From assembly GCA_040755715.1 (NCBI GenBank), contig JBFLXN010000120.1, forward strand, positions 1 through 8,531: DNA of 8,531 nucleotides, read 5' to 3'. How positions within the stretch are numbered: the first letter of the stretch is position 1; each line of letters starts with the position of its first letter. The notes under the pieces were generated by a model. It was not told the origin of the DNA and did not search any database. It was given only the letters and a program-made list of their open reading frames with translations. Shown here piece by piece: positions 115 through 8,352 of this stretch. The position numbers and the translations under genes are program-made. This DNA comes from JBFLXN01 sp040755715 [NCBI: Candidatus Edwardsbacteria bacterium] (GTDB lineage: Bacteria; Edwardsbacteria; AC1; JBFLXN01).

Positions 115-2475
115 CTAATAGATATTGAAGAGATTAAACACTGGAAGCCCTAATTTCAGCAGAGCAATGATGGTAGCGATAACCATCACAATTACAATCA
201 CCATTTTCCCGTAGTCTTGACTCTTTAATGCCGCCAGAAGGCTCGGATTTTTTGATATGTAGGCGCTTGCTGCATATAACTCTTCGCCAATCAGGGTGTA
301 GTCGCAAGCAGTAATGAAGAAAGGTAATTGTGTCACCGCATCAGTACCGGCAATCTGAATGGCTCCGGTTGATGAACCAGTCTCGGCCATAATCAGGGAT
401 TCAGCCCAGAACATACCAACCAGAAAATTGGCGGCTGGTTTTTCTCTGAGCATAATTCCATCTACGGCCGCCGCATAAGCGAACTGGGAATCGGTCACAA
501 AATAGACACTATCAGGATTATATGCATCTGGTCTGCCTACTTTATTATACGCCTCCTTAACTACTTCCCTAGCTACGGTAAAGACAATCGGGTCTCTATT
601 CGGCACAATCAATGGTGTGTTACTTTGGGCTGCCTTTTTTGCTACTTCACTAAGAATATTTAAGGAAGCAATAGTGGCCACATCGGTAATATCAGAAGTA
701 CCCGGAACATAGAGAATAGGTCGTCCCATCTCGGTTGCTCGACCCACAGTCTCATCTATTGCCGATAATCCGGAAATTCTGCGAATAAAAAGTTCTTTAC
801 CTCTTTTTGTCAGCTCCATAAAAAACACTACCAGAAAGACAAAAATAACCAGAGAAATCAATGCATTTATTCTCCCTTTATGGAACCACTGAGGAGAAGC
901 AATAACATACGGAGTTATTTGCGAAAATACTTTTTCGTTATTTTTTGTTATGGCAACCAGTCGGTAGGCATAAGGAATGCCATTAAAGATGGCGAGGCGG
1001 TCTTGAAATTTGTTCACCTCTCTCCCTAATCGGGCATAGACACCATAACTTCCGCTGTCTCTTTCTGTACGATTTACCACATACCCCATAAACTCCTTTG
1101 GTTCCCTTGATGGATTCCAGACAAGTGTTGTTCTCCTTTTTTCCTTTTCCATTTTATCTTCAGTAATTCTAAATGGAATTGAAATTTCTTTTACGGCCCT
1201 TGCTTCATATATGTATTCTTTTTTCGGTTCGGCTATTCCGTCTATAAATTTATTCTCATTAGGAGCAGTGAAGTCCACATATTTGAATTGATTAGCGCTA
1301 TCCTTTTCGGCACGATATATGAGTGTCAGGTCATAACTTTGTCCAATTACTTTGGGATTAATCTTCCACTCAAGTTTAATTACCCTGCCGGTCATACCCA
1401 TGGAATCGGAAACTATTGTTGCTGGCATAGTAATCTGATAAGATTTTCCAATATAATAACGATAGTCAAGCTGAGGTTTAGCCGTAGTGTCAGTATATAT
1501 AAAAATATCTTTGAATGATGCTAATGAATCATACCCCAGTCTAAGCAGGAGATAATTTTTAATCTCATCAGCATTGGGCGAAGGTTCCCAGGTAATTCTA
1601 AAGCCTTTACCTTCATCATCGGGTATGTCTTCGGCAATCATGCATTTTGGTGTTCCTATGGTAAATAGGCGTTCCGAGGCTTTAGAAAATGATTTTTCTG
1701 TCCCTTTTATTGAAGCAACTTTGTAGTAGTATCTTACTCCATCCTTCATCGTTGTATCTTTGTATGATGAAATACCGAATTTTACAAATCCTATCGGTTC
1801 ATATTCACCTTCTTTATCCGTGCGCCATACTTCATATATCTCGCCCAGATAAAGTTCATTGGGTCTTTTCCATCGCAGTATGTTTTGTTGTTTGCCATTG
1901 GTTGTATCTTTCGCAACTTTGTGGATAATGGATACAACTTTCACTGCGCGGACTTTATATCGGCTATTAGGTGAATACAATTCGTCTTTAAATTCACTTT
2001 GGCTTGTGGGAGGAAGGGCATATCTTTTCCTATCTTTCAGGATTTCAATATCAGTAAAACCCAATGCTTTTTGTGGGAGATGCCAGGAGATTATTTTTGT
2101 TTTGCTATTGATACGATGCGGAACTTTTATCACTTCTTTCTTAATCACATCATACTGATATTCGTGTTTGGGGTTGAGATTTTGGTCAATAAAAACAGAG
2201 TCTTGAACCAATGAACCCAAAAGAATATATTTAGACCTCAAGACCTGATAGCCATCAATTATTCGTTCGTCTTTTGACTTCTCCCAGCCGATGGTGATGC
2301 TAATACTGTCATTGTTGACAATCTTCGTCACCTTAACATTTTTTGGCGGGTCTAAGGCAAAAACAAAGAATACTTGTGTAAACAAAATAGTCAGAAGGAT
2401 ACTTCCTGAAACCCTCAATAATCTCACTATTTTGTTTGGTTTTTTTATAGAAACAATTCTTAAGATGAAAGTCAT
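115..2475 (-). CDS. Large multi-FN3 membrane protein with C-terminal DUF6754-type domain
   Basis: This 786-residue protein is anchored in the membrane and its function is unknown. An uncleaved-looking hydrophobic segment lies at about residues 24-41. It is followed by a long extracytoplasmic region (about 42-530) with roughly six divergent FN3-like repeats, marked by recurring W-K/N-x-P and Y-Y/x-Y-x-V-x-A strand patterns near 42-115, 125-178, 195-272, 278-345, 360-428 and 440-525. Then come a TM segment (about 537-554), a conserved domain (about 560-755) and a final TM segment (about 758-776). The conserved domain matches the 378-residue paralogue at 5200-6336 at roughly three quarters identity by eye. 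Shared motifs include GRATEMG, TIASLNIL, TDSQFAYAAAVDG, AIQIAGTD and TACDYTLIGEELYAASAY; I assign it to the DUF6754 family from recall. The start is preceded by GAGG at a good distance (CCGAGGTTCCTATG). Its ATG overlaps, as ATGA, the stop of a chimeric remnant ORF. Coordinates and architecture are clear; the function is not. Confidence 0.9.
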   Translation of the reverse strand: MTFILRIVSIKKPNKIVRLLRVSGSILLTILFTQVFFVFALDPPKNVKVTKIVNNDSISITIGWEKSKDERIIDGYQVLRSKYILLGSLVQDSVFIDQNLNPKHEYQYDVIKKEVIKVPHRINSKTKIISWHLPQKALGFTDIEILKDRKRYALPPTSQSEFKDELYSPNSRYKVRAVKVVSIIHKVAKDTTNGKQQNILRWKRPNELYLGEIYEVWRTDKEGEYEPIGFVKFGISSYKDTTMKDGVRYYYKVASIKGTEKSFSKASERLFTIGTPKCMIAEDIPDDEGKGFRITWEPSPNADEIKNYLLLRLGYDSLASFKDIFIYTDTTAKPQLDYRYYIGKSYQITMPATIVSDSMGMTGRVIKLEWKINPKVIGQSYDLTLIYRAEKDSANQFKYVDFTAPNENKFIDGIAEPKKEYIYEARAVKEISIPFRITEDKMEKEKRRTTLVWNPSREPKEFMGYVVNRTERDSGSYGVYARLGREVNKFQDRLAIFNGIPYAYRLVAITKNNEKVFSQITPYVIASPQWFHKGRINALISLVIFVFLVVFFMELTKRGKELFIRRISGLSAIDETVGRATEMGRPILYVPGTSDITDVATIASLNILSEVAKKAAQSNTPLIVPNRDPIVFTVAREVVKEAYNKVGRPDAYNPDSVYFVTDSQFAYAAAVDGIMLREKPAANFLVGMFWAESLIMAETGSSTGAIQIAGTDAVTQLPFFITACDYTLIGEELYAASAYISKNPSLLAALKSQDYGKMVIVIVMVIATIIALLKLGLPVFNLFNIY

Positions 2476-2618
2476 AGGAACCTCGGAATGTTGTTATTTA
2501 AAAAAACTCTTCTGTCAAAAGTGTAGTTATTCATTGAAAAACAGTTTATTACTATTTCACTATCTTTAGTGATGCCTCCTGCGGCGCGGATTATATGCTC
2601 TAATTGTGGACGATTCAT
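2472..2618 (-). pseudogene. Truncated DUF6036/AbiEii-like nucleotidyltransferase, first 24 codons
   Basis: From the ATG at 2618 the minus strand reads MNRPQLEHIIRAAGGITK and then DSEIVI. As I recall the family, this is the characteristic N-terminus of DUF6036 (AbiEii-like) nucleotidyltransferases, which would continue with IGSQAILG, the start of the nucleotidyltransferase fold. Here similarity stops at about 2547. The frame runs on through 24 unrelated codons and ends in a TGA at 2474-2472 that overlaps the ATG of the FN3 gene. The GS motif and catalytic acidic residues are therefore absent, and the product cannot be an active transferase. Its start lies inside the end of the preceding remnant gene in another frame, the overlapped order expected for this two-gene module. 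This is a deletion remnant. Confidence 0.7.
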
Positions 2619-2884
2619 AAATCCTTATCCTTCCCTCATTTGAGAGAATTCCAGCAAACGGACTTAATTGTCAGAGTCTTCGTGCATCTTCATTAGAAGA
2701 TACCAACAACTTCAGGAGCTTTTGGATAGGTTCATTATTAAGTATTCTTTTCCATTCTGAGAGGCAAACGGGAACTTTCGCACCATCTTTGAGATATTGC
2801 ACTCGCCAATTCTTTATATTTTCCTTTGCAATACTGATAAGTTTAGGATTAGACTTTATTAGTTTTGCAATACCTTTGTGTCAT
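2566..2884 (-). pseudogene. Broken small helical partner gene of the DUF6036-type nucleotidyltransferase
   Basis: One minus-strand frame from 2880 to 2566 encodes about 105 codons. It begins HKGIAKLIKSNPKLISIAKE, goes on through NWRVQYLKDGAKVP and SEWKRILNN, and ends in RAYNPRRRHH before a TAA at 2568-2566. An in-frame TGA at 2673-2671 interrupts it between SNEDARRL and QLSPFAGILSNEGRIRIYE. In relatives I recall an arginine at this place (RRLRQ-SPFAG), so CGA to TGA is the likely lesion. The candidate ATG at 2884 is one base out of frame with the readable part, a second likely lesion. The protein would be small, basic and helical. I recall such proteins encoded directly upstream of DUF6036 nucleotidyltransferases, in an antitoxin-like position, which matches the downstream remnant. 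Reading through one stop with coherent sequence on both sides supports a pseudogene. Confidence 0.65.
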
Positions 2885-2896
2885 AACCCCATCTTT

Positions 2897-2956
2897 GTAA
2901 AGGGCAGGACTTGTCTCTGTTCTATCATTTGGGCAACCATAAAGGTTGCCCCCTAC
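2897..2956. repeat. 60-bp inverted-repeat (MITE/REP-like) element
   Basis: The ends are imperfect inverted repeats: GTAAAGGGCA at 2897-2906 and TGCCCCCTAC at 2947-2956, matching at 8 of 10 positions. Inside lies a perfect 8-bp stem, GGGCAACC (2931-2938) and GGTTGCCC (2944-2951), with a 5-nt loop, and a decayed second palindrome around 2906-2920 (CAGAGACAAGTCCTG on the minus strand). The form GTAGGGGCAACC...TTGCCC...GACAAGTCC...CTAC resembles short dispersed intergenic elements I recall from uncultured candidate-phylum genomes. There is no T-run after either strand's hairpin, so it is not a typical intrinsic terminator. Confidence 0.5.
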
Positions 2957-2981
2957 CGTAAAGATACGAATTGCGCCACAG

Positions 2982-2998
2982 TCTCTTTGAAAAAGAGA
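2982..2998. repeat. Short hairpin downstream of the membrane-gene operon
   Basis: TCTCTTT and AAAGAGA form a perfect 7-bp inverted repeat with a 3-nt loop, about 35 nt past the stop of the last membrane gene on the minus strand. It is AT rich and lacks a following T-run, so it is at most a weak 3'-end structure. With the inverted-repeat element next to it, it is the only candidate transcript-end structure in the gap. Confidence 0.3.
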
Positions 2999-3032
2999 GA
3001 GCATCTACCCATGCAGTAACTGGAAGAATGTT

Positions 3033-3674
3033 TCACTTAATCAAGTGTATCCAATCAGTAAAAAGAAACTGGACTCTGCCTATAAGGAGTGATATACGAG
3101 CCATTACCGTGTAGCCGAAGGCCGCACCGAAACCAACCATAATGAAGATGATGCCAGTATAGGAGGAAACCTTCAATGGACCTTTATGTTCTTTAGAAAA
3201 GAAAAAGTAAGAGAGGGTGCAGAGAACTCCCACCAGTAATATCACTGACCAGATAATTCCAATTGAACCTGCTCCCCAGCGAGAAAAATTCTGGGGAGTA
3301 AGAATAGTTCCTTGAATCTGCTTTACAATGTCGGCTTGAACACTAGCAGGAATTGAGGCTCCGGTATAATAACCAATCGTCACCGCAATAGGTATTCTAA
3401 TCAACCAAGAGATTTTAGAAATGAATCTTGTCAAATAGAGGAGACCAACTACGAAGGCGGCGATGAGGGCCAATCGTCCATCACGAAACAGAGGAATAAA
3501 GAGATTAGGGACCAAAACCCGATGCCACATAAATGTCACCATATAGCCATTGGCGACTCCCACAAAGAGATGTTCAGCAAATTTGTAAAATGGATTGTCC
3601 TTGTAGAGAAAGGAAAATATCGCCAAACTTAGAAGTGCACTTATCCAGACCCAAGGATTAAGCGAAATACTCAT
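3033..3674 (-). CDS. Six-TM integral membrane protein of unknown function
   Basis: This 213-residue, strongly hydrophobic protein has about six membrane segments (roughly residues 7-24, 36-60, 69-86, 88-106, 135-158 and 171-195). A polar loop at about 107-134 may lie on one face. Near the N-terminus, NPFYKFAEHLFVGVANGY has conserved-looking polar and aromatic residues (F, H, N) inside a membrane segment, which could be functional. I know no characterised homologue. The ATG at 3674 overlaps the stop of the previous gene as ATGA and is preceded by AAGGAGGAG, which fixes the start and indicates translational coupling. It is the last gene of the tightly packed membrane set. The gap that follows holds only remnants before the paralogous FN3 gene. 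It is probably a structural partner of the DUF6754-type protein in one complex. Confidence 0.85.
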   Translation of the reverse strand: MSISLNPWVWISALLSLAIFSFLYKDNPFYKFAEHLFVGVANGYMVTFMWHRVLVPNLFIPLFRDGRLALIAAFVVGLLYLTRFISKISWLIRIPIAVTIGYYTGASIPASVQADIVKQIQGTILTPQNFSRWGAGSIGIIWSVILLVGVLCTLSYFFFSKEHKGPLKVSSYTGIIFIMVGFGAAFGYTVMARISLLIGRVQFLFTDWIHLIK

Positions 3675-4534
3675 TTTCTCCTCCTTTTGATAAAATAGCC
3701 AATATTACCAATGATGACAAAAAGAATAATCACTAAATGGGATGTAGTCAAGGCAGTCAAGGCTTCGCTTGCTTTTCTCCTTTTTTTAATTTGGAGATTT
3801 CTCTCCACCATTTCTTCGTATTCTGCCGCACCTTTCATCCCAGCCAAAAGACCAGAAAATTGGCCTGTCTGAAGGTAGGGATAGAAATCTGAGGTGCTAA
3901 CTGCAGTAATGCCAGCACCGACCTTGAGCCCAAATCTATTCTGGGCGTAGGCCACCCACCAGACAGGAGGACTGCCTCCACTAATTGAAACAAGTAACCC
4001 AACATCGTTATAGTTCTTTATTCCTCTCATCATTGGAAGGGTATCAGTCTTGTTCCCGTAGTAATCGGTCTTGTAGACTTTACTAATACTCTCACCCATT
4101 CCGAGAATTGGGATAATTGGTGGCGGTTGCCAGCCGAGAAATACATAATCCCTTCCGTAAATAATACTATCAGCATGCGTTTTGCTTTCTTTATTCATCT
4201 CCCCCACCACAATATTTAAGGCATCCTCGGCTAATCCAAGTGGCTGAACAAATAAAGAAAGAACTGCCACCTTTATCTTCCTTCTAAAAGCATGTCGTAA
4301 TAGAGCAATTCCCATTGGATGCAGTTCAGGTTGGGTTTGTGGGTCGTAATCAGAATCAATCATCAGCACCTTATTAGAAGGAATTCTGTCAACTGCCTCG
4401 TATAATTTTTTTACCGGGAACATCACCCTGATTGATTGGGCGATAGGAAAAATCAAAGGAATTACCACCACCAGTGCTAAAATAAGAAAAATTATCCGAC
4501 GGTCAATATTTGTGAGAAGGTCTAAAATTTTCAT
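3671..4534 (-). CDS. Two-TM protein with a conserved soluble domain, unknown function
   Basis: Taken from the ATG at 4534 the protein has 287 residues. It has an N-terminal TM segment (about 14-38), a soluble domain (about 40-240), a basic linker (KKRRK near 250-254) and a C-terminal TM segment (about 263-282) ending in RRRK. The soluble domain has alternating strand/helix character, such as KVLMIDSDYDPQTQPE, KIKVAVLSLF and DVGLLVSISGG, followed by PPVWWVAYAQNRFG and FYPYLQTGQFSGLLAGMKGA. It suggests a Rossmann-like fold, but I cannot name a family. A longer in-frame start at 4552 would add MAWRWR. I reject it because 4534 has GGAGG six bases upstream and overlaps the previous stop as ATGA. 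The next gene overlaps its stop in the same way. The protein is probably a component of the same membrane complex as its neighbours. Confidence 0.85.
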   Translation of the reverse strand: MKILDLLTNIDRRIIFLILALVVVIPLIFPIAQSIRVMFPVKKLYEAVDRIPSNKVLMIDSDYDPQTQPELHPMGIALLRHAFRRKIKVAVLSLFVQPLGLAEDALNIVVGEMNKESKTHADSIIYGRDYVFLGWQPPPIIPILGMGESISKVYKTDYYGNKTDTLPMMRGIKNYNDVGLLVSISGGSPPVWWVAYAQNRFGLKVGAGITAVSTSDFYPYLQTGQFSGLLAGMKGAAEYEEMVERNLQIKKRRKASEALTALTTSHLVIILFVIIGNIGYFIKRRRK

Positions 4535-5190
4535 TCTCCACCTCCAAGCCAAGAACGCTCAATACCTAAGATAATCTTAATAGCCGTAGCTAAACTGCCC
4601 AAGGCAATACCGAATGTGATTCCTCGCTTGGCGGCTGTATTAGGAACATCAAGAATCCACTGGGCAAAGGAAGGAAGACCGTGAGAGATTTTATCTCCCA
4701 GAGGTAGAACGCCAAGCATCACAATAAAAGCGGCGGCTAAAAGTAAGGTCGCCTCAGCTGAACGGGCCCGGAACGCTCTATATGATGCCGAAGCCATATA
4801 AAATGCCAAGATGGCAAACATTGTTGAACCGAGTGGAACTTCAATATTCATATAGAGTGTCTGAATATCGAAAGGAAAAGAACCAATTTTAGTGGGAAGA
4901 AGACCCTTACCGCTAACTCCACCAAAAAGTCCGATTATTGAGGTAAGGAAGAAACTTATAATTAGAACCCAGGAGTACGGCCAGTTTACTTGTTTCCTCC
5001 CTATCTTATCAAAGTGGACTCTCAATAGACTTCCCAGCCCAAGGACAATGGCAAAGGCTGAGACGAGCCGGAGAAAATCATTGCGAAGGAATTCATCGGT
5101 ATTCTGAACAATCGGATGGGGAATAATAAATGGAATCATTCCCAGAACACCAAATATGAGCACAAGTAAAAGTGGAAATTTCCTCTTCAT
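4531..5190 (-). CDS. Six-TM integral membrane protein of unknown function
   Basis: This 219-residue protein has about six hydrophobic segments (near residues 5-24, 38-57, 72-91, 118-137, 145-164 and 189-209). A loop after the third segment (GGVSGKGLLPTKIGSFPFD) precedes a short stretch that may be extracytoplasmic. An RAFRARSAEA segment near 138-147 is probably a cytoplasmic loop by the positive-inside rule. I recognise no characterised family. The ATG at 5190 sits 9 nt after the stop of the FN3-DUF6754 gene, and a Shine-Dalgarno (TAGGAGG) overlaps that stop codon. Its own end (GGGE, TGA) contains the Shine-Dalgarno of the next gene. This packing strongly suggests an operon and stoichiometric production with its neighbours. 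Confidence 0.85.
   Translation of the reverse strand: MKRKFPLLLVLIFGVLGMIPFIIPHPIVQNTDEFLRNDFLRLVSAFAIVLGLGSLLRVHFDKIGRKQVNWPYSWVLIISFFLTSIIGLFGGVSGKGLLPTKIGSFPFDIQTLYMNIEVPLGSTMFAILAFYMASASYRAFRARSAEATLLLAAAFIVMLGVLPLGDKISHGLPSFAQWILDVPNTAAKRGITFGIALGSLATAIKIILGIERSWLGGGE
4541..4545 (-). promoter_or_regulatory. Shine-Dalgarno that fixes the start of the two-TM gene
   Basis: GGAGG on the minus strand lies inside the last codons of the upstream gene (GGA GGT GGA GAA TGA), six bases before the ATG at 4534. It supports the shorter start and ATGA coupling over the in-frame ATG at 4552, whose upstream sequence lies within coding DNA and has no comparable site. Confidence 0.7.
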
Positions 5191-5199
5191 CTTTTCCTC

Positions 5200-6336
5200 C
5201 TATTTAAATAATCCCAATATTGGGAATTTTGTTAAAAGACCTAAAACCGAAGCAGTAGTTAAGACAACAATAATGATAATCTTCCCCCAATCTTCTCCTT
5301 TTATTGCCCCTAAGAGTAGCGGTTCCTTGGAAAGATAGGCAGAAGCAGCGTAAAGTTCTTCTCCAATGAGTGTATAATCGCAGGCAGTGAAAAAAAATGG
5401 CAATTGAGCAACAGAATCAGTGCCGGCAATCTGGATAGCACCGGTTGACGCTCCGGTTTCCGCAAGAATTAAAGCTTCAGCGGCAAAAGTCCCAATTAAA
5501 AAATTCGTCGCCGGTCTATCACGCAGCATCATTCCATCCACCGCAGCCGCATAGGCAAATTGTGAATCAGTAACAAAAAAGACACTATCAGCATCAAATG
5601 CATCAGGTCTGCCGACAACCGTATAGGATTCCTTTACAATTTCCCTCGCCACTGTATAAACCACCGGGTAGTAATTAGGAACAATCAGTGGTGTATCATA
5701 CTGGGCTATCTTTTTTGCTACTGCACCTAAAATATTAAGAGAGGCAATGGTTGCAATATAATCAATATCACCTGTACCAAGGCAATAGAGAACTGGTTTC
5801 CCCATCTCAGTTGCTCTACCTACAGCATCGTCCACTGCTTGAAGACCAGCTATTTTTCTTATGAACAGAGGTTTTCCACGCCGAGCGTGAGAAATGAAGA
5901 GAAGAACCAAGCCCCCAAAGACAATGAGGGCCACAAAGATATTTATTTTCTTTTTGTCAACCCATTGGGGAAAACTTTTGATGGGTCCCGTGGTTTCTGA
6001 CTGCACCCTTATAGAATCACAAAGAGTTGCCACATAGTAGTAGTATTTTACTCTATCTTTAGTTTGATCAGCAAAACTACAAACACTTCTACCAACGAAA
6101 CCTATTTTTTCAAACACTCCGCCTTCTTCTCTTCTATAGATTTCATAACCTTCAATAATGGAATCATCGGGTGAGAGCTTCCATTCTATGCTAATTTCTT
6201 TCCCCCCATCATTCGGCGTATCAAATGCCTTCACTTCTGTAGGTGGAGCAATAGAGGATTTCGGTAGTTCTTCCGCTGAACAAAAATTCGCAATCCCCAG
6301 AATCCCCACCGTCAAACAGAGTATTGTTTTTCGCAT
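5200..6336 (-). CDS. Secreted/anchored FN3-DUF6754-type membrane protein
   Basis: This is a 378-residue protein with a signal peptide (residues 1-21, cut predicted after FCSA). One fibronectin type III-like domain follows (about 30-118, with the core EISIEWKLSPDDSIIEGYEIYR and a YYYYVATL strand). Next are a TM segment (about 130-149), a conserved domain (about 153-348) and a C-terminal TM segment (about 352-372). The conserved domain carries GRATEMG, TIASLNIL, TDSQFAYAAAVDG, AIQIAGTD and TACDYTLIGEELYAASAY. I match it to DUF6754 from recall; no function is known to me. The FN3 domain should lie outside the membrane and the conserved domain on the other side. The start is well supported: AAGGAGG lies five bases before the ATG, inside the 3' end of the ferredoxin gene, which it overlaps by 25 nt. 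It heads the membrane gene set and is a shorter paralogue of the 786-residue protein at 115-2475. Confidence 0.92.
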   Translation of the reverse strand: MRKTILCLTVGILGIANFCSAEELPKSSIAPPTEVKAFDTPNDGGKEISIEWKLSPDDSIIEGYEIYRREEGGVFEKIGFVGRSVCSFADQTKDRVKYYYYVATLCDSIRVQSETTGPIKSFPQWVDKKKINIFVALIVFGGLVLLFISHARRGKPLFIRKIAGLQAVDDAVGRATEMGKPVLYCLGTGDIDYIATIASLNILGAVAKKIAQYDTPLIVPNYYPVVYTVAREIVKESYTVVGRPDAFDADSVFFVTDSQFAYAAAVDGMMLRDRPATNFLIGTFAAEALILAETGASTGAIQIAGTDSVAQLPFFFTACDYTLIGEELYAASAYLSKEPLLLGAIKGEDWGKIIIIVVLTTASVLGLLTKFPILGLFK

Positions 6337-6824
6337 ACTTTCCTCCTTCTAAAGAATCTAACCTTCATTTCCATTCCCTTTGGCACTGCGAGAGAGATAA
6401 TCGGGGTTCTATCTTGTGCTTTGGTATTTAGCACCCTCACCACCTTTGCTGGACAACAAGATTTTCCACTTCGGTCCAAACCTTTAACAATTTCCCCAAC
6501 TTTAGGCAAGGGCAAAAACTCGTACGGAAGCATAACCAACGCTTCTTCCTTAGAATAATCTAGATTGATAACAAAGACAGCCAACCCTGGACAGTTAGCA
6601 ATACAAATTCCGCAACCGGTGCATTTTTCCGCATCAAATTGTGGCAAGGCATTTATATCTTCGCCAACCTTTATTGCCTCCTTCGGACAAGTCGTCTCGC
6701 AAGGATTACAGGGAATTTCTTGAAAACATTCAATGATAGCAACGGCACCTTTCCTCTTTCTTTTTATATAAGGAACAATCTTCTGCAAATCTTTTACAGT
6801 AGGAACACCACTCTTTTCTATCAT
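6312..6824 (-). CDS. 2x[4Fe-4S] ferredoxin-type subunit of an HcnAB-like redox module
   Basis: This 170-residue protein carries two iron-sulphur motifs. The second is canonical, CTGCGICIANCP (C68, C71, C74, C78). The first is C33-x5-C39-xx-C42-xxx-C46-P (CFQEIPCNPCETTCP), with a wider first spacing that I recall as typical for this family. After about residue 90 there is a non-cluster C-terminal domain with a CC pair (C123-C124). It likely passes electrons between the FAD/NAD(P) oxidoreductase encoded upstream and a partner in the cytoplasm. The ATG at 6824 has only a weak upstream GGA and follows a palindromic repeat, so its expression may differ from that of the two upstream genes. Its 3' end overlaps the FN3 gene by 25 nt and contains that gene's Shine-Dalgarno. 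The last residues (FFRRRKVCEKQYSV) may therefore be shaped by the overlap. Confidence 0.88.
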   Translation of the reverse strand: MIEKSGVPTVKDLQKIVPYIKRKRKGAVAIIECFQEIPCNPCETTCPKEAIKVGEDINALPQFDAEKCTGCGICIANCPGLAVFVINLDYSKEEALVMLPYEFLPLPKVGEIVKGLDRSGKSCCPAKVVRVLNTKAQDRTPIISLAVPKGMEMKVRFFRRRKVCEKQYSV

Positions 6825-6833
6825 AGTATATCC

Positions 6834-6932
6834 GATTACGCAGATTATAGAATATGATTACACAGATTAGCACAGATATTTCTGATAATATCTGTGCTAA
6901 TCTTGCGATATTTTATCTGCGCTAATCTGCAA
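6834..6932. repeat. Palindromic intergenic repeat (GATTAnRCAGATTA family)
   Basis: A perfect 17-bp inverted repeat, AGATTAGCACAGATATT (6864-6880) and its complement (6887-6903), encloses a 6-nt loop. Related units flank it: GATTACGCAGATTA at 6834-6847 and GATTACACAGATTA at 6856-6869 (13 of 14 bases shared), and ATCTGCGCTAATCTGC at 6915-6930 on the other side. I recall similar 'GATTACACAGATTAGCACAGAT' elements dispersed between genes in many environmental genomes. It overlaps the 3' end of the oxidoreductase gene. As RNA it would make a stable hairpin between the second and third genes, with no T-run, so it could be an mRNA processing or stability element rather than a terminator. Confidence 0.65.
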
Positions 6933-8030
6933 TTTCTGTTTACCGATTCTCGGCTTTTCTCCAAATGGTCCAGCCCGCAGTAAACTTAACCTCTCACGGA
7001 CCTGTGCTTTTTCTTTATCTAAACTCAAATTCTTAATACTTTCCGCAGCAGCCAAACCAGCCAATTGGCCTTCCAACATAGCAGTAGAAGCTTCTTCAAT
7101 TCCGGAGACATCACCGGCCACATAAATTCCTTGGACGCTCGTCTCCATATCTTCATTATGCCAAGCAACATGTCCGCCCAGTTCGGGGATATAATACATT
7201 TCGCAACCCGCTTGCCAGAGAATTTCTGTCAGCGGTGAAAGCCCCACTGCCAGGCAGATTGTATCTATTTTTAATTTTTTTTCAGTGCCAGCAATGAGTC
7301 GCCAATTCTTGTCTATCTTCACGATAACCGCTCCTTCAACTTCTTCCTTACCAATAGCTTCTTTAATTGTATGAGAGACTAATATTGGCACACCCGTTCT
7401 AGCAATCTTAGAGGCATGGACCAAATATCCGCCAATCTTCGGGAGTGCTTCAATAACTGCGACCACAGAAACACCAGCCTGCAATAATTGATAAGAAACA
7501 ATCAGACCAATATTTCCTGAACCAACCATCAAGACTCGTTTGCCCGGTCTCACACCATAAACATTCATCAGGGTCTGCACTGCTCCAGCACCATACACTC
7601 CTGGCAAATCGTTATTCGGAAAGGAAACTATATTTTCTGCGGCACCAGTAGCGACAACCAATGCTTCCGTCTTTATTTTCTCCAATCTATCCGTTTGAAG
7701 AATCGCTATTTGGTTTCCCTCATAATATCCAATCACAGTGCTATTTAACAGAACTCTAATTCCTCTCTTTTTTACTTCGGCACTCAGTTGACTTCCTATA
7801 TCAATTCCTCTTATCCCTGCTTTTTCCTGATGTGAACCAAAAAACATATGCGTTTGTTTAATCAACTGTCCACCCAATCGGTCATTTTCATCAATCAGAG
7901 TAATATCTACCCCATATTCTGAGGCACTCAAAGCTGCCATCAGTCCTGCCGGTCCACCTCCAATGATTAAAAGTTCCGTAGTTGGCTCTAGGCTGTCTAC
8001 TTCTGTTATCTGTGTTCTGTCATCTGTCAT
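6897..8030 (-). CDS. FAD/NAD(P)-dependent oxidoreductase, HcnB/sarcosine-oxidase-like
   Basis: This 377-residue flavoprotein has the two-dinucleotide-fold architecture: FAD-binding GGGPAG (24-29), an ATGA motif (127-130), a second nucleotide-binding GSGNIG (170-175) and the FAD-contacting GDVSGIEEAS (306-315). It belongs to the group that forms the alpha/B subunits of hydrogen cyanide synthase, opine oxidase and dye-linked proline dehydrogenase complexes. There it relays electrons to or from a separate DadA-like subunit. The C-terminal BFD-like [2Fe-2S] domain found in some members is absent. The start lies 7 nt after the previous stop with only a weak AAAG upstream, in a simple ACAGATG repeat. 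A later ATG is out of frame, and the native core begins near residue 17 (TTELLIIGGG). The last dozen residues (QISADKISQD region) are encoded by a dispersed palindromic repeat and are probably not ancestral. Confidence 0.9.
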   Translation of the reverse strand: MTDDRTQITEVDSLEPTTELLIIGGGPAGLMAALSASEYGVDITLIDENDRLGGQLIKQTHMFFGSHQEKAGIRGIDIGSQLSAEVKKRGIRVLLNSTVIGYYEGNQIAILQTDRLEKIKTEALVVATGAAENIVSFPNNDLPGVYGAGAVQTLMNVYGVRPGKRVLMVGSGNIGLIVSYQLLQAGVSVVAVIEALPKIGGYLVHASKIARTGVPILVSHTIKEAIGKEEVEGAVIVKIDKNWRLIAGTEKKLKIDTICLAVGLSPLTEILWQAGCEMYYIPELGGHVAWHNEDMETSVQGIYVAGDVSGIEEASTAMLEGQLAGLAAAESIKNLSLDKEKAQVRERLSLLRAGPFGEKPRIGKQKLQISADKISQD

Positions 8031-8036
8031 CTGTCT
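7996..8036 (-). repeat. Simple ACAGATGACAGA-type repeat at a gene start
   Basis: The minus strand reads GACAGATGACAGATGACAG and then AACACAGATAACAGAAGTAGACAG, a run of imperfect 7-8 nt ACAGATR units. It spans the junction of the [2Fe-2S] gene and the oxidoreductase and encodes residues 1-12 of the latter (MTDDRTQITEVD). It provides the start codon but no clear Shine-Dalgarno, so initiation probably depends on coupling to the upstream stop at 8038-8040. Confidence 0.45.
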
Positions 8037-8037
8037 T

Positions 8038-8352
8038 TCAGCTTTGAAGTTTCAATCTTCCCTTTCCCTTTTGCCTCTTAACGGTCATTCCCTCTCTCAG
8101 TGGAGTCACACAGACCATCACATTCGGCACACCGTCAACTTCCATCAAGCAAGATGAACATTTGCCATTAGCACAAAAAAAGCCGCGGGGACGATTCAGT
8201 CTGTGACTATATCGCAGGACTTTAATCCCGGCGGCATGCAAAGCGGCCACAATGGGTTCTCCATTATAGCCTTCCAATGTTTCTCCTTCAAATTGAAAGG
8301 GAACTTTTTCTCTCCTCTCAAATTGCAGAATTGGATGTTCTTCAATGCGCAT
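8038..8352 (-). CDS. [2Fe-2S] ferredoxin-fold subunit, HcnA/sarcosine-oxidase-alpha N-terminal type
   Basis: This 104-residue protein has a plant-type [2Fe-2S] cluster motif: C60-x4-C65-x2-C68 (CANGKCSSC) followed by C81. It begins with MRIEEHPIL, contains the YNGEPIVAALHAAGIKVLRYS segment and has NRPRGFFC just before the cluster. This pattern is typical of the small subunit paired with HcnB-like flavoproteins in HCN synthase, opine oxidase and proline dehydrogenase complexes. It probably passes electrons within that cytoplasmic or membrane-associated complex. It is the first gene of the minus-strand operon and is followed after 7 nt by the flavoprotein gene. No Shine-Dalgarno precedes the ATG, and the -10 box ends 8 nt before it, so the mRNA is probably leaderless. 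The length is normal for a stand-alone subunit. Confidence 0.92.
   Translation of the reverse strand: MRIEEHPILQFERREKVPFQFEGETLEGYNGEPIVAALHAAGIKVLRYSHRLNRPRGFFCANGKCSSCLMEVDGVPNVMVCVTPLREGMTVKRQKGKGRLKLQS

What the first reader, a model, noticed from the sequence alone, without database searches (positions are those of the whole stretch)
3033..6336. Undescribed four-gene membrane system around an FN3-DUF6754 protein
Four genes with overlaps or gaps of no more than 9 nt, each with a strong Shine-Dalgarno, encode an FN3/DUF6754-type protein, two six-TM proteins and a two-TM protein with a large soluble domain. Such packing suggests one membrane complex with fixed stoichiometry. None matches a transporter, secretion or energy-converting family I know. 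The extracytoplasmic FN3 domain combined with a conserved polar domain (TDSQFAYAAAVDG, TACDYTLIGEELYAASAY) suggests a surface-linked assembly or sensing function.
Basis: partly seen in the sequence, partly recalled or inferred. Interest (0 to 1): 0.65.

Follow-up and report, generated by a model that had tools for sequence, protein, structure and literature searches.

The report
Conserved membrane system of unknown function
Four neighbouring genes make parts of an undescribed membrane complex that most sampled members of four little-known bacterial phyla carry, usually together with two partner proteins, and nobody yet knows what it does.

Summary
Four genes (A, B, C, D; window 6336 to 3033, minus strand) are packed with a 9-nt gap and 4-nt overlaps and have strong ribosome-binding sites. 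Only A has a Pfam name (DUF6754); B, C and D match nothing in Pfam, NCBIfam or the PDB at a meaningful score. A-B-C-D is a fixed block: 129 of 135 testable DUF6754 genes are followed by B, C, D in order. DUF6754 is in 140 of 147 WOR-3, 60 of 60 Zixibacteria, 39 of 39 Poribacteria and 50 of 60 Latescibacterota genomes, against 1 of 56 in an outside phylum. Genomes hold up to seven copies of the gene. FN3 is dispensable, and the conserved motifs lie on the predicted cytoplasmic side, so the surface-assembly reading is weak. Function is not shown; an ATP-linked envelope transport machine is my best guess (0.35).

The parts
5200..6336 (-). Gene A: signal sequence, periplasmic FN3 domain (about 28-124), TM helix (about 131-149), cytoplasmic alpha/beta DUF6754 domain with invariant R-x-T-E-x-G, Cys-Asp and Glu-Glu motifs, C-terminal TM helix
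   Evidence: PF20539 E 2e-114; AF2 mean pLDDT 81.4, pTM 0.62; FN3 Z 13.5; conserved residues
4531..5190 (-). Gene B: multi-TM protein (5 strong segments, 6 plausible) with conserved R, R and E-R residues; no known family
3671..4534 (-). Gene C: TM - soluble six-strand alpha/beta domain (predicted periplasmic) - TM with basic C-terminus; no known family
   Evidence: AF2 mean pLDDT 91.7, pTM 0.87
3033..3674 (-). Gene D: multi-TM protein (4 strong segments, 6 plausible) with conserved N, E, R and Q residues; no known family
115..2475 (-). Gene E: second DUF6754 protein with a long FN3-type N-terminal region; probable first gene of a second A-B-C-D module cut by the window edge
   Evidence: PF20539 E 2e-117 and one fn3 match; in L088 and L089 its closest relatives are followed by B, C, D
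6312..6824 (-). Flanking 4Fe-4S ferredoxin-type gene, 25-nt overlap with gene A; same-strand run but not found next to the module in the other loci compared
6897..8030 (-). Flanking FAD/NAD(P) oxidoreductase (sarcosine-oxidase-alpha-like); neighbour not conserved
8038..8352 (-). Flanking 2Fe-2S protein (Fer2_4); neighbour not conserved

Best explanation
A, B, C and D are the subunits of one inner-membrane complex. B and D form the membrane-embedded core; A carries a cytoplasmic alpha/beta domain and, in most WOR-3 copies seen, a periplasmic FN3 arm; C carries an alpha/beta domain on the periplasmic side. A cytosolic GlmL/MutL-type ATPase (ASKHA fold by family, recalled) and a lipoyl-domain-like adaptor, each usually with one main copy per genome, serve all copies of the complex. 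The most likely job is ATP-linked movement or export of envelope material, with paralogous modules handling different substrates. SHOWN: linkage, copy-number pattern, co-occurrence of the six families. PREDICTED: topology and folds. INFERRED: that the products bind each other, that MutL energises the complex, and transport itself.
For: 129 of 135 testable A genes are followed by B, C, D on the same strand; the order is also kept in contigs titled WOR-3, Latescibacterota, Poribacteria, Planctomycetota and Zixiibacteriota. Whole-genome profiles agree: A in 140 of 147 and C in 144 of 147 WOR-3-phylum genomes. B was found in 21 of 25 and D in 22 of 25 chosen genomes, 7 of which were chosen for lacking A; three of those 7 (G026, G134, G135) lack all four families, the other four carry B, C or D pieces at contig ends. 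MutL and the adaptor were found in the fetched stretch around the module, mostly adjacent, in 16 and 19 of 20 Latescibacterota loci and 8 and 8 of 20 Zixibacteria loci. MutL matches at E below 1e-50 in 21 of 21 module-bearing (in G089 as two partial pieces) against 4 of 13 module-lacking genomes; the adaptor in 22 of 23 (in G003 as two pieces) against 4 of 21. Up to seven DUF6754 genes per genome in varied contexts fits different cargoes. Conserved charged residues lie in or beside hydrophobic segments of B and D. Some modules sit beside envelope genes: a gene family typed as SLBB/Poly_export in L078 lies 65-101 nt upstream of A in L075, L078 and L080, and a Wzi-like gene follows D in L084.
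Against: No transport or ATPase activity is shown. Neighbours are inconsistent (acyl-CoA dehydrogenases, metG, redox genes), so no substrate is indicated. In the WOR-3 loci fetched, MutL and the adaptor are not beside the module. G004 has modules and MutL but no adaptor match; G026 has MutL and adaptor but no module; G175 has the adaptor but no module, with unrelated genes behind it; G171 has MutL only. MutL scores below the NCBIfam cut-offs for GlmL (230.7 against 475), and GlmL-type proteins are not known as transport motors (recalled). The profile tests use related genomes, so their p values (2e-7 and 1e-5) overstate independence.
Confidence: 0.35

Rival explanations
1. A trans-envelope sensor: FN3 arms and the periplasmic domain of C detect an envelope or extracellular state, and the conserved cytoplasmic domain of A signals or catalyses inside.
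For: The periplasmic part of A is variable (from no FN3 to about 500 residues) while the cytoplasmic domain is the most conserved part, with invariant Cys-Asp and Glu-Glu motifs; tandem paralogous modules resemble receptor expansions.
Against: Two conserved multi-TM subunits per module are more than a sensor needs. Presence in all or nearly all sampled genomes of three phyla suggests housekeeping.
Confidence: 0.22
2. A membrane-bound enzyme complex that builds or modifies envelope lipid or polysaccharide, with active sites in the alpha/beta domains of A (cytoplasm) and C (periplasm).
For: Conserved polar residues in both soluble domains (A: R, T, E, Q, C, D, E, E; C: E70, D129, D157, Q225, E240); the C domain is Rossmann-like, best matches MT0777 Z 9.7 (rmsd 3.4, 140 aligned), CODH epsilon 9.1-9.2, Sir2 8.7; envelope genes beside some copies.
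Against: Z under 10 may show only a common arrangement, not an enzyme family; no sequence relation to a solved enzyme at a meaningful score.
Confidence: 0.22
3. A redox-driven ion pump or electron-transfer complex (Rnf/Nqr-like), fed by the iron-sulfur and flavin genes upstream in this window.
For: Gene A overlaps the ferredoxin-type gene by 25 nt in a same-strand run with FAD and 2Fe-2S genes; the adaptor weakly matches RnfC_N and NqrA_N barrel-sandwich domains; one conserved Cys in A.
Against: The window's redox genes have no match in the 32 loci beyond a weak FAD hit in L016 and L018, and none in the closest relatives L088 and L089. No Cys reached 97% conservation in B, C or D. The adaptor matches stay around or below Pfam's cut-offs.
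Confidence: 0.08
4. The inner-membrane energising part of a type IX-like secretion system.
For: UPF0164/PorV-like outer-membrane genes recur near the module, closest 89 and 226 nt from A in L031 and L030; SprA_N is matched in 30 of 31 sampled WOR-3, Latescibacterota and Zixibacteria genomes and, weakly, in 4 of 4 Poribacteria (2 over the cut-off).
Against: SprA_N does not follow the module: it is matched in 8 of 9 sampled genomes of these phyla that lack it (all but G170) and not in G010, which has it.
Confidence: 0.05

Closest known systems
DUF6754 (Pfam PF20539)
   Same: A and E are near full-length matches, 381 and 391 bits against a cut-off of 27
   Different: Pfam names only this one of the genes and gives no function; B, C, D have no family and the adaptor only partial, borderline domain matches
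GlmL/MutL family (PF13941, NF040745, TIGR01319), methylaspartate mutase accessory protein
   Same: The partner ATPase matches PF13941 over its whole 450 positions
RnfC / NqrA N-terminal barrel-sandwich domain
   Same: The adaptor weakly matches RnfC_N, Biotin_lipoyl and NqrA_N
   Different: No match to the SLBB, flavin or 4Fe-4S parts of RnfC
Tripartite and ABC importers/exporters (works-like comparison)
   Same: Two multi-TM subunits, a predicted periplasmic soluble subunit and a cytosolic ATPase partner, in paralogous copies
   Different: No ABC ATPase or binding-protein family match in A-D; the ATPase gene is usually one per genome and in WOR-3 unlinked
FN3 domains
   Same: Predicted FN3 fold in A, Z 13.5
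   Different: Optional decoration, absent in several distant copies

Membership tests
DUF6754 (PF20539) | Profile match above the curated cut-off over the domain | tested here: met
   A 381 bits (positions 3-247 of 257), E 391 bits (2-249), cut-off 27
One conserved A-B-C-D gene block | The four families occur together, same order and strand, in distant genomes | tested here: met
   129 of 135
One physical protein complex | The products bind each other | not testable with these tools
   No multimer prediction or experiment available
Fibronectin type III domain | FN3 fold in A | tested here: met
   Structure Z 13.5; Pfam fn3 not matched in A, 25.0 bits at cut-off 25 in E
GlmL/MutL (PF13941), partner protein | Full-length match to the Pfam model | tested here: met
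   E 1e-129 in L028; full-length in most WOR-3 genomes searched
GlmL equivalog (NF040745), partner protein | NCBIfam cut-off 475 bits | tested here: not met
   230.7 bits for L142:7801-9606
Rnf/Nqr ion pump | Sequence match of the membrane subunits to Rnf/Nqr families | tested here: not met
   B and D have no Rnf or Nqr match in Pfam or NCBIfam
ABC transporter | ABC ATPase or ABC permease domain in the module | tested here: not met
   No match in A-D; the ABC ATPase typed in L001 is a two-domain, ABC-F-like protein on the opposite strand
Type IX secretion motor | Co-variation with the SprA translocon | tested here: not met
   SprA_N matched in 8 of 9 sampled genomes of these phyla without the module
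Type IX secretion motor | Relation of A-D to GldL/GldM (PorL/PorM) | tested here: inconclusive
   No Pfam or NCBIfam match in A-D; no structure comparison made against GldLM
Anti-phage defence systems | Match to a PADLOC model | tested here: not met
   0 families for A-E, adaptor and MutL
Rossmann-like NAD/FAD-binding (DHS-like) domain, protein C | Fold match clearly above background | tested here: inconclusive
   Best Z 9.7, rmsd 3.4, 140 aligned

The most novel reading that the evidence does not exclude
A previously unrecognised class of envelope machine: a cytosolic GlmL/MutL-type (ASKHA) ATPase and a lipoyl-like adaptor drive or assemble a four-subunit inner-membrane complex with one alpha/beta domain on each side of the membrane. 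It is core to at least four bacterial phyla and amplified into paralogous modules. This would be a new way to couple ATP to envelope transport or assembly.
Probability: 0.3. Interest if true: 0.85.

Novelty: categorically new. Interest (0 to 1): 0.62.

Why it matters
A gene block that all or nearly all sampled genomes of WOR-3, Zixibacteria and Poribacteria, and most of Latescibacterota, keep must do something important there, yet only one gene has even a placeholder Pfam name and no paper in the searched library contains 'DUF6754'. Defining its families gives a concrete target in lineages where much of the proteome is unannotated (2,083 predicted genes with 1,107 hypothetical proteins in the cultured WOR-3 strain sy37; PMC12285271, passage seen). 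It is also a test case for whether GlmL-type ATPases have a role beyond B12 enzymes.

Tried and rejected
B and D as duplicated copies of one another, or A and C as homologous domains: no profile similarity with about 30 sequences each or with 130-161 each. The PDB searches with the A model were filled by FN3 matches, so its DUF6754 domain is effectively untested. PDB sequence searches with B, C, D, A, the adaptor and MutL gave nothing meaningful. Type IX secretion link: rejected as main reading because SprA does not follow the module. Redox pump: ranked low because the redox neighbours are not conserved. Defence: no PADLOC match. Mobile origin: no match to A in the phage and plasmid collections. 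Literature: no paper with 'DUF6754'; 'glutamate mutase L' with 'membrane', and two combined searches on these phyla, returned none; 'GlmL' with 'mutase' returned seven papers, seen as listing only. Of the two WOR-3 papers I saw outline and passages (PMC12285271) and passages (PMC12542636); the word fibronectin occurs in neither main text; neither was read whole.

L028 ('Oligoflexia') may be a mis-binned contig: 1 of 56 genomes of its phylum has the family.
Full report
What is there. The window's minus strand carries, in order, a 2Fe-2S gene, an FAD oxidoreductase, a ferredoxin-type gene, then A, B, C, D, a gap of about 0.55 kb, and a long second DUF6754 gene E. A-B gap 9 nt, B-C and C-D overlaps 4 nt, strong ribosome-binding sites on A, B, C and D, a weak one on E. 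The nearest relatives found are WOR-3 (Stahlbacteria) contigs, up to 70% identity for A.

Known families. A and E belong to DUF6754; B, C and D have no credible Pfam or NCBIfam match, no PDB sequence relative at a meaningful score and no PADLOC match. No paper in the searched library contains 'DUF6754'.

The block is real and conserved. In 32 loci from genome contigs, A is followed by B, C and D homologues in this order as far as the contig reaches, apart from a doubled A in L019 and degenerate copies in L007 and L012. With my own profiles, 129 of 135 A genes with at least 2.6 kb downstream are followed by B, C, D on the same strand. The six misses are three doubled A genes (L076, L093, L120), a decayed copy (L012), a third A without partners (L087) and an A followed only by a B fragment (L133). 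At least two loci in this set repeat others (L094, L106). Identities to the window proteins fall to 31-52% in L030-L032 (Zixibacteria-type) while order is kept.

Distribution. DUF6754: 140 of 147 genomes of the WOR-3 phylum, 1-7 copies where present; 50 of 60 Latescibacterota, one copy in 49 of the 50; 60 of 60 Zixibacteria, 2-6; 39 of 39 Poribacteria, 1-2; 1 of 56 in the phylum of an 'Oligoflexia' genome, possibly a mis-binned contig; 0 of 14 well-known control genomes. C is in 144 of 147 WOR-3-phylum genomes, in G051 only weakly. In 25 chosen genomes B is in 21 and D in 22. Of the seven WOR-3-phylum genomes without A, G026, G134 and G135 lack all four families, while G022, G029, G060 and G147 have remaining pieces at contig ends.

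Two more partners. In stretches around the module, 20 Latescibacterota loci hold the adaptor gene in 19 and the MutL gene in 16, mostly in the order MutL-adaptor-A-B-C-D; 20 Zixibacteria loci hold both in 8, on either strand. MutL is a full-length PF13941 protein. The adaptor (about 375 aa, start M-x-H-x-Y-x-P-G-L, 51-60% identity to the first row across phyla, alignment A5) weakly matches lipoyl and RnfC_N barrel-sandwich domains. In the WOR-3 loci fetched both genes lie elsewhere in the genome: MutL behind a gene typed in L142 as glycine-cleavage gcvPB, the adaptor in six loci before genes typed in L160 as PorV-like (below cut-off) and accA. Presence largely tracks the module: MutL (E below 1e-50) in 21 of 21 module-bearing, in G089 as two partial pieces, against 4 of 13 module-lacking genomes; four more module-lacking genomes have only weak matches inside larger frames, one of which (L172) is caprolactamase-like. 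Adaptor in 22 of 23, in G003 as two pieces, against 4 of 21. Fisher p 1e-5 and 2e-7, not corrected for relatedness. Of the four adaptor-positive, module-lacking genomes, G206 and G211 have MutL and adaptor at a contig end, where the module would lie beyond the edge; in G175 about 0.9 kb behind the adaptor holds unrelated frames, and G026 has MutL and adaptor on separate contigs. G171 has MutL without adaptor; G004 has modules and MutL but no adaptor match. MutL and an adaptor-like domain are fused in single frames of about 950 aa in L168 and L169.

A second module. In the close relatives G083 and G082 (L088, L089) A-B-C-D is followed by an E-like gene and then another B, C and D. E in the window is therefore probably the first gene of a second module whose rest lies beyond base 1; this was not seen directly.

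Anatomy. A: signal sequence, FN3, TM, alpha/beta domain, TM. FN3 is absent in L023, L024 and L030-L032. C: TM, alpha/beta domain (mean pLDDT 91.7), TM, basic C-terminus; basic residues before the first TM and after the second put the domain in the periplasm, though WOR-3 copies also have a basic patch just before the second TM that argues the other way. The C domain is Rossmann-like with only middling PDB matches (best Z 9.7). A and C soluble domains share the same predicted element order, but no sequence homology was detected. Polar residues conserved in at least 97% of 130-161 sequences include R50, T52, E53, C195, D196, E202, E203 in A (numbering of the L001 domain), E70, D129, D157, Q225, E240, H266 in C, R138, R141, R189, E211, R212 in B and E34, R93, Q119, R193 in D (L001 numbering).

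Function. Context does not fix it: different module lineages sit by SLBB/polysaccharide-export genes, acyl-CoA dehydrogenases, DUF4388 genes, a Wzi-like gene, metG or, here, redox genes. Amplified modules with usually one main ATPase and adaptor gene, two multi-TM subunits with conserved charges, and soluble domains predicted on both sides favour an ATP-linked transport or assembly machine; sensing and enzymatic readings remain open. A type IX secretion link was tested through SprA and not supported.

Verdict.

Noticed in passing
window 2476-3020, minus strand: Gap between D and E with broken reading frames; one piece reads MNRPQLEHIIRAAGGITKDSEIVI, which resembles the start of a nucleotidyltransferase-type gene (recalled, not searched). 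Relatives L088 and L089 have a much shorter gap here.
   Followed up: partly
window 6312-8352: 2Fe-2S, FAD oxidoreductase and ferredoxin-type genes, same strand; the last overlaps gene A by 25 nt. Not found next to the module in the loci apart from a weak FAD hit in L016 and L018.
   Followed up: partly
L168:7759-10611, L169:7055-9856, L170:6801-9312: MutL and an adaptor-like domain fused in one frame (L168, L169) or adjacent (L170), besides separate MutL and adaptor genes in the same genomes.
   Followed up: partly
L138-L150 and L154, e.g. L142:5988-9606: In WOR-3 a gcvPB-type gene (typed in L142), a small unknown gene of about 104 aa and MutL form a recurrent run; 13 loci share the small gene family.
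   Followed up: partly
L158-L160, L163, L164, L166: In WOR-3 the adaptor gene is followed by members of two families, typed in L160 as PorV-like (below cut-off) and accA, in six loci.
   Followed up: partly
L019, L076, L093, L120: Two DUF6754 genes in a row before B, C and D: a variant module with two A subunits.
   Followed up: no
L028 / G010: Contig labelled Oligoflexia carries MutL-adaptor-A-B-C-D as in Latescibacterota, while the 55 other sampled genomes of its phylum lack DUF6754; mis-binning or transfer.
   Followed up: partly
L096:9418-11605: About 2.2 kb lies between B and C.
   Followed up: no
L174:1-930 (G175): Toxin-antitoxin-like frames directly behind the adaptor gene (likeness recalled, not searched).
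   Followed up: no
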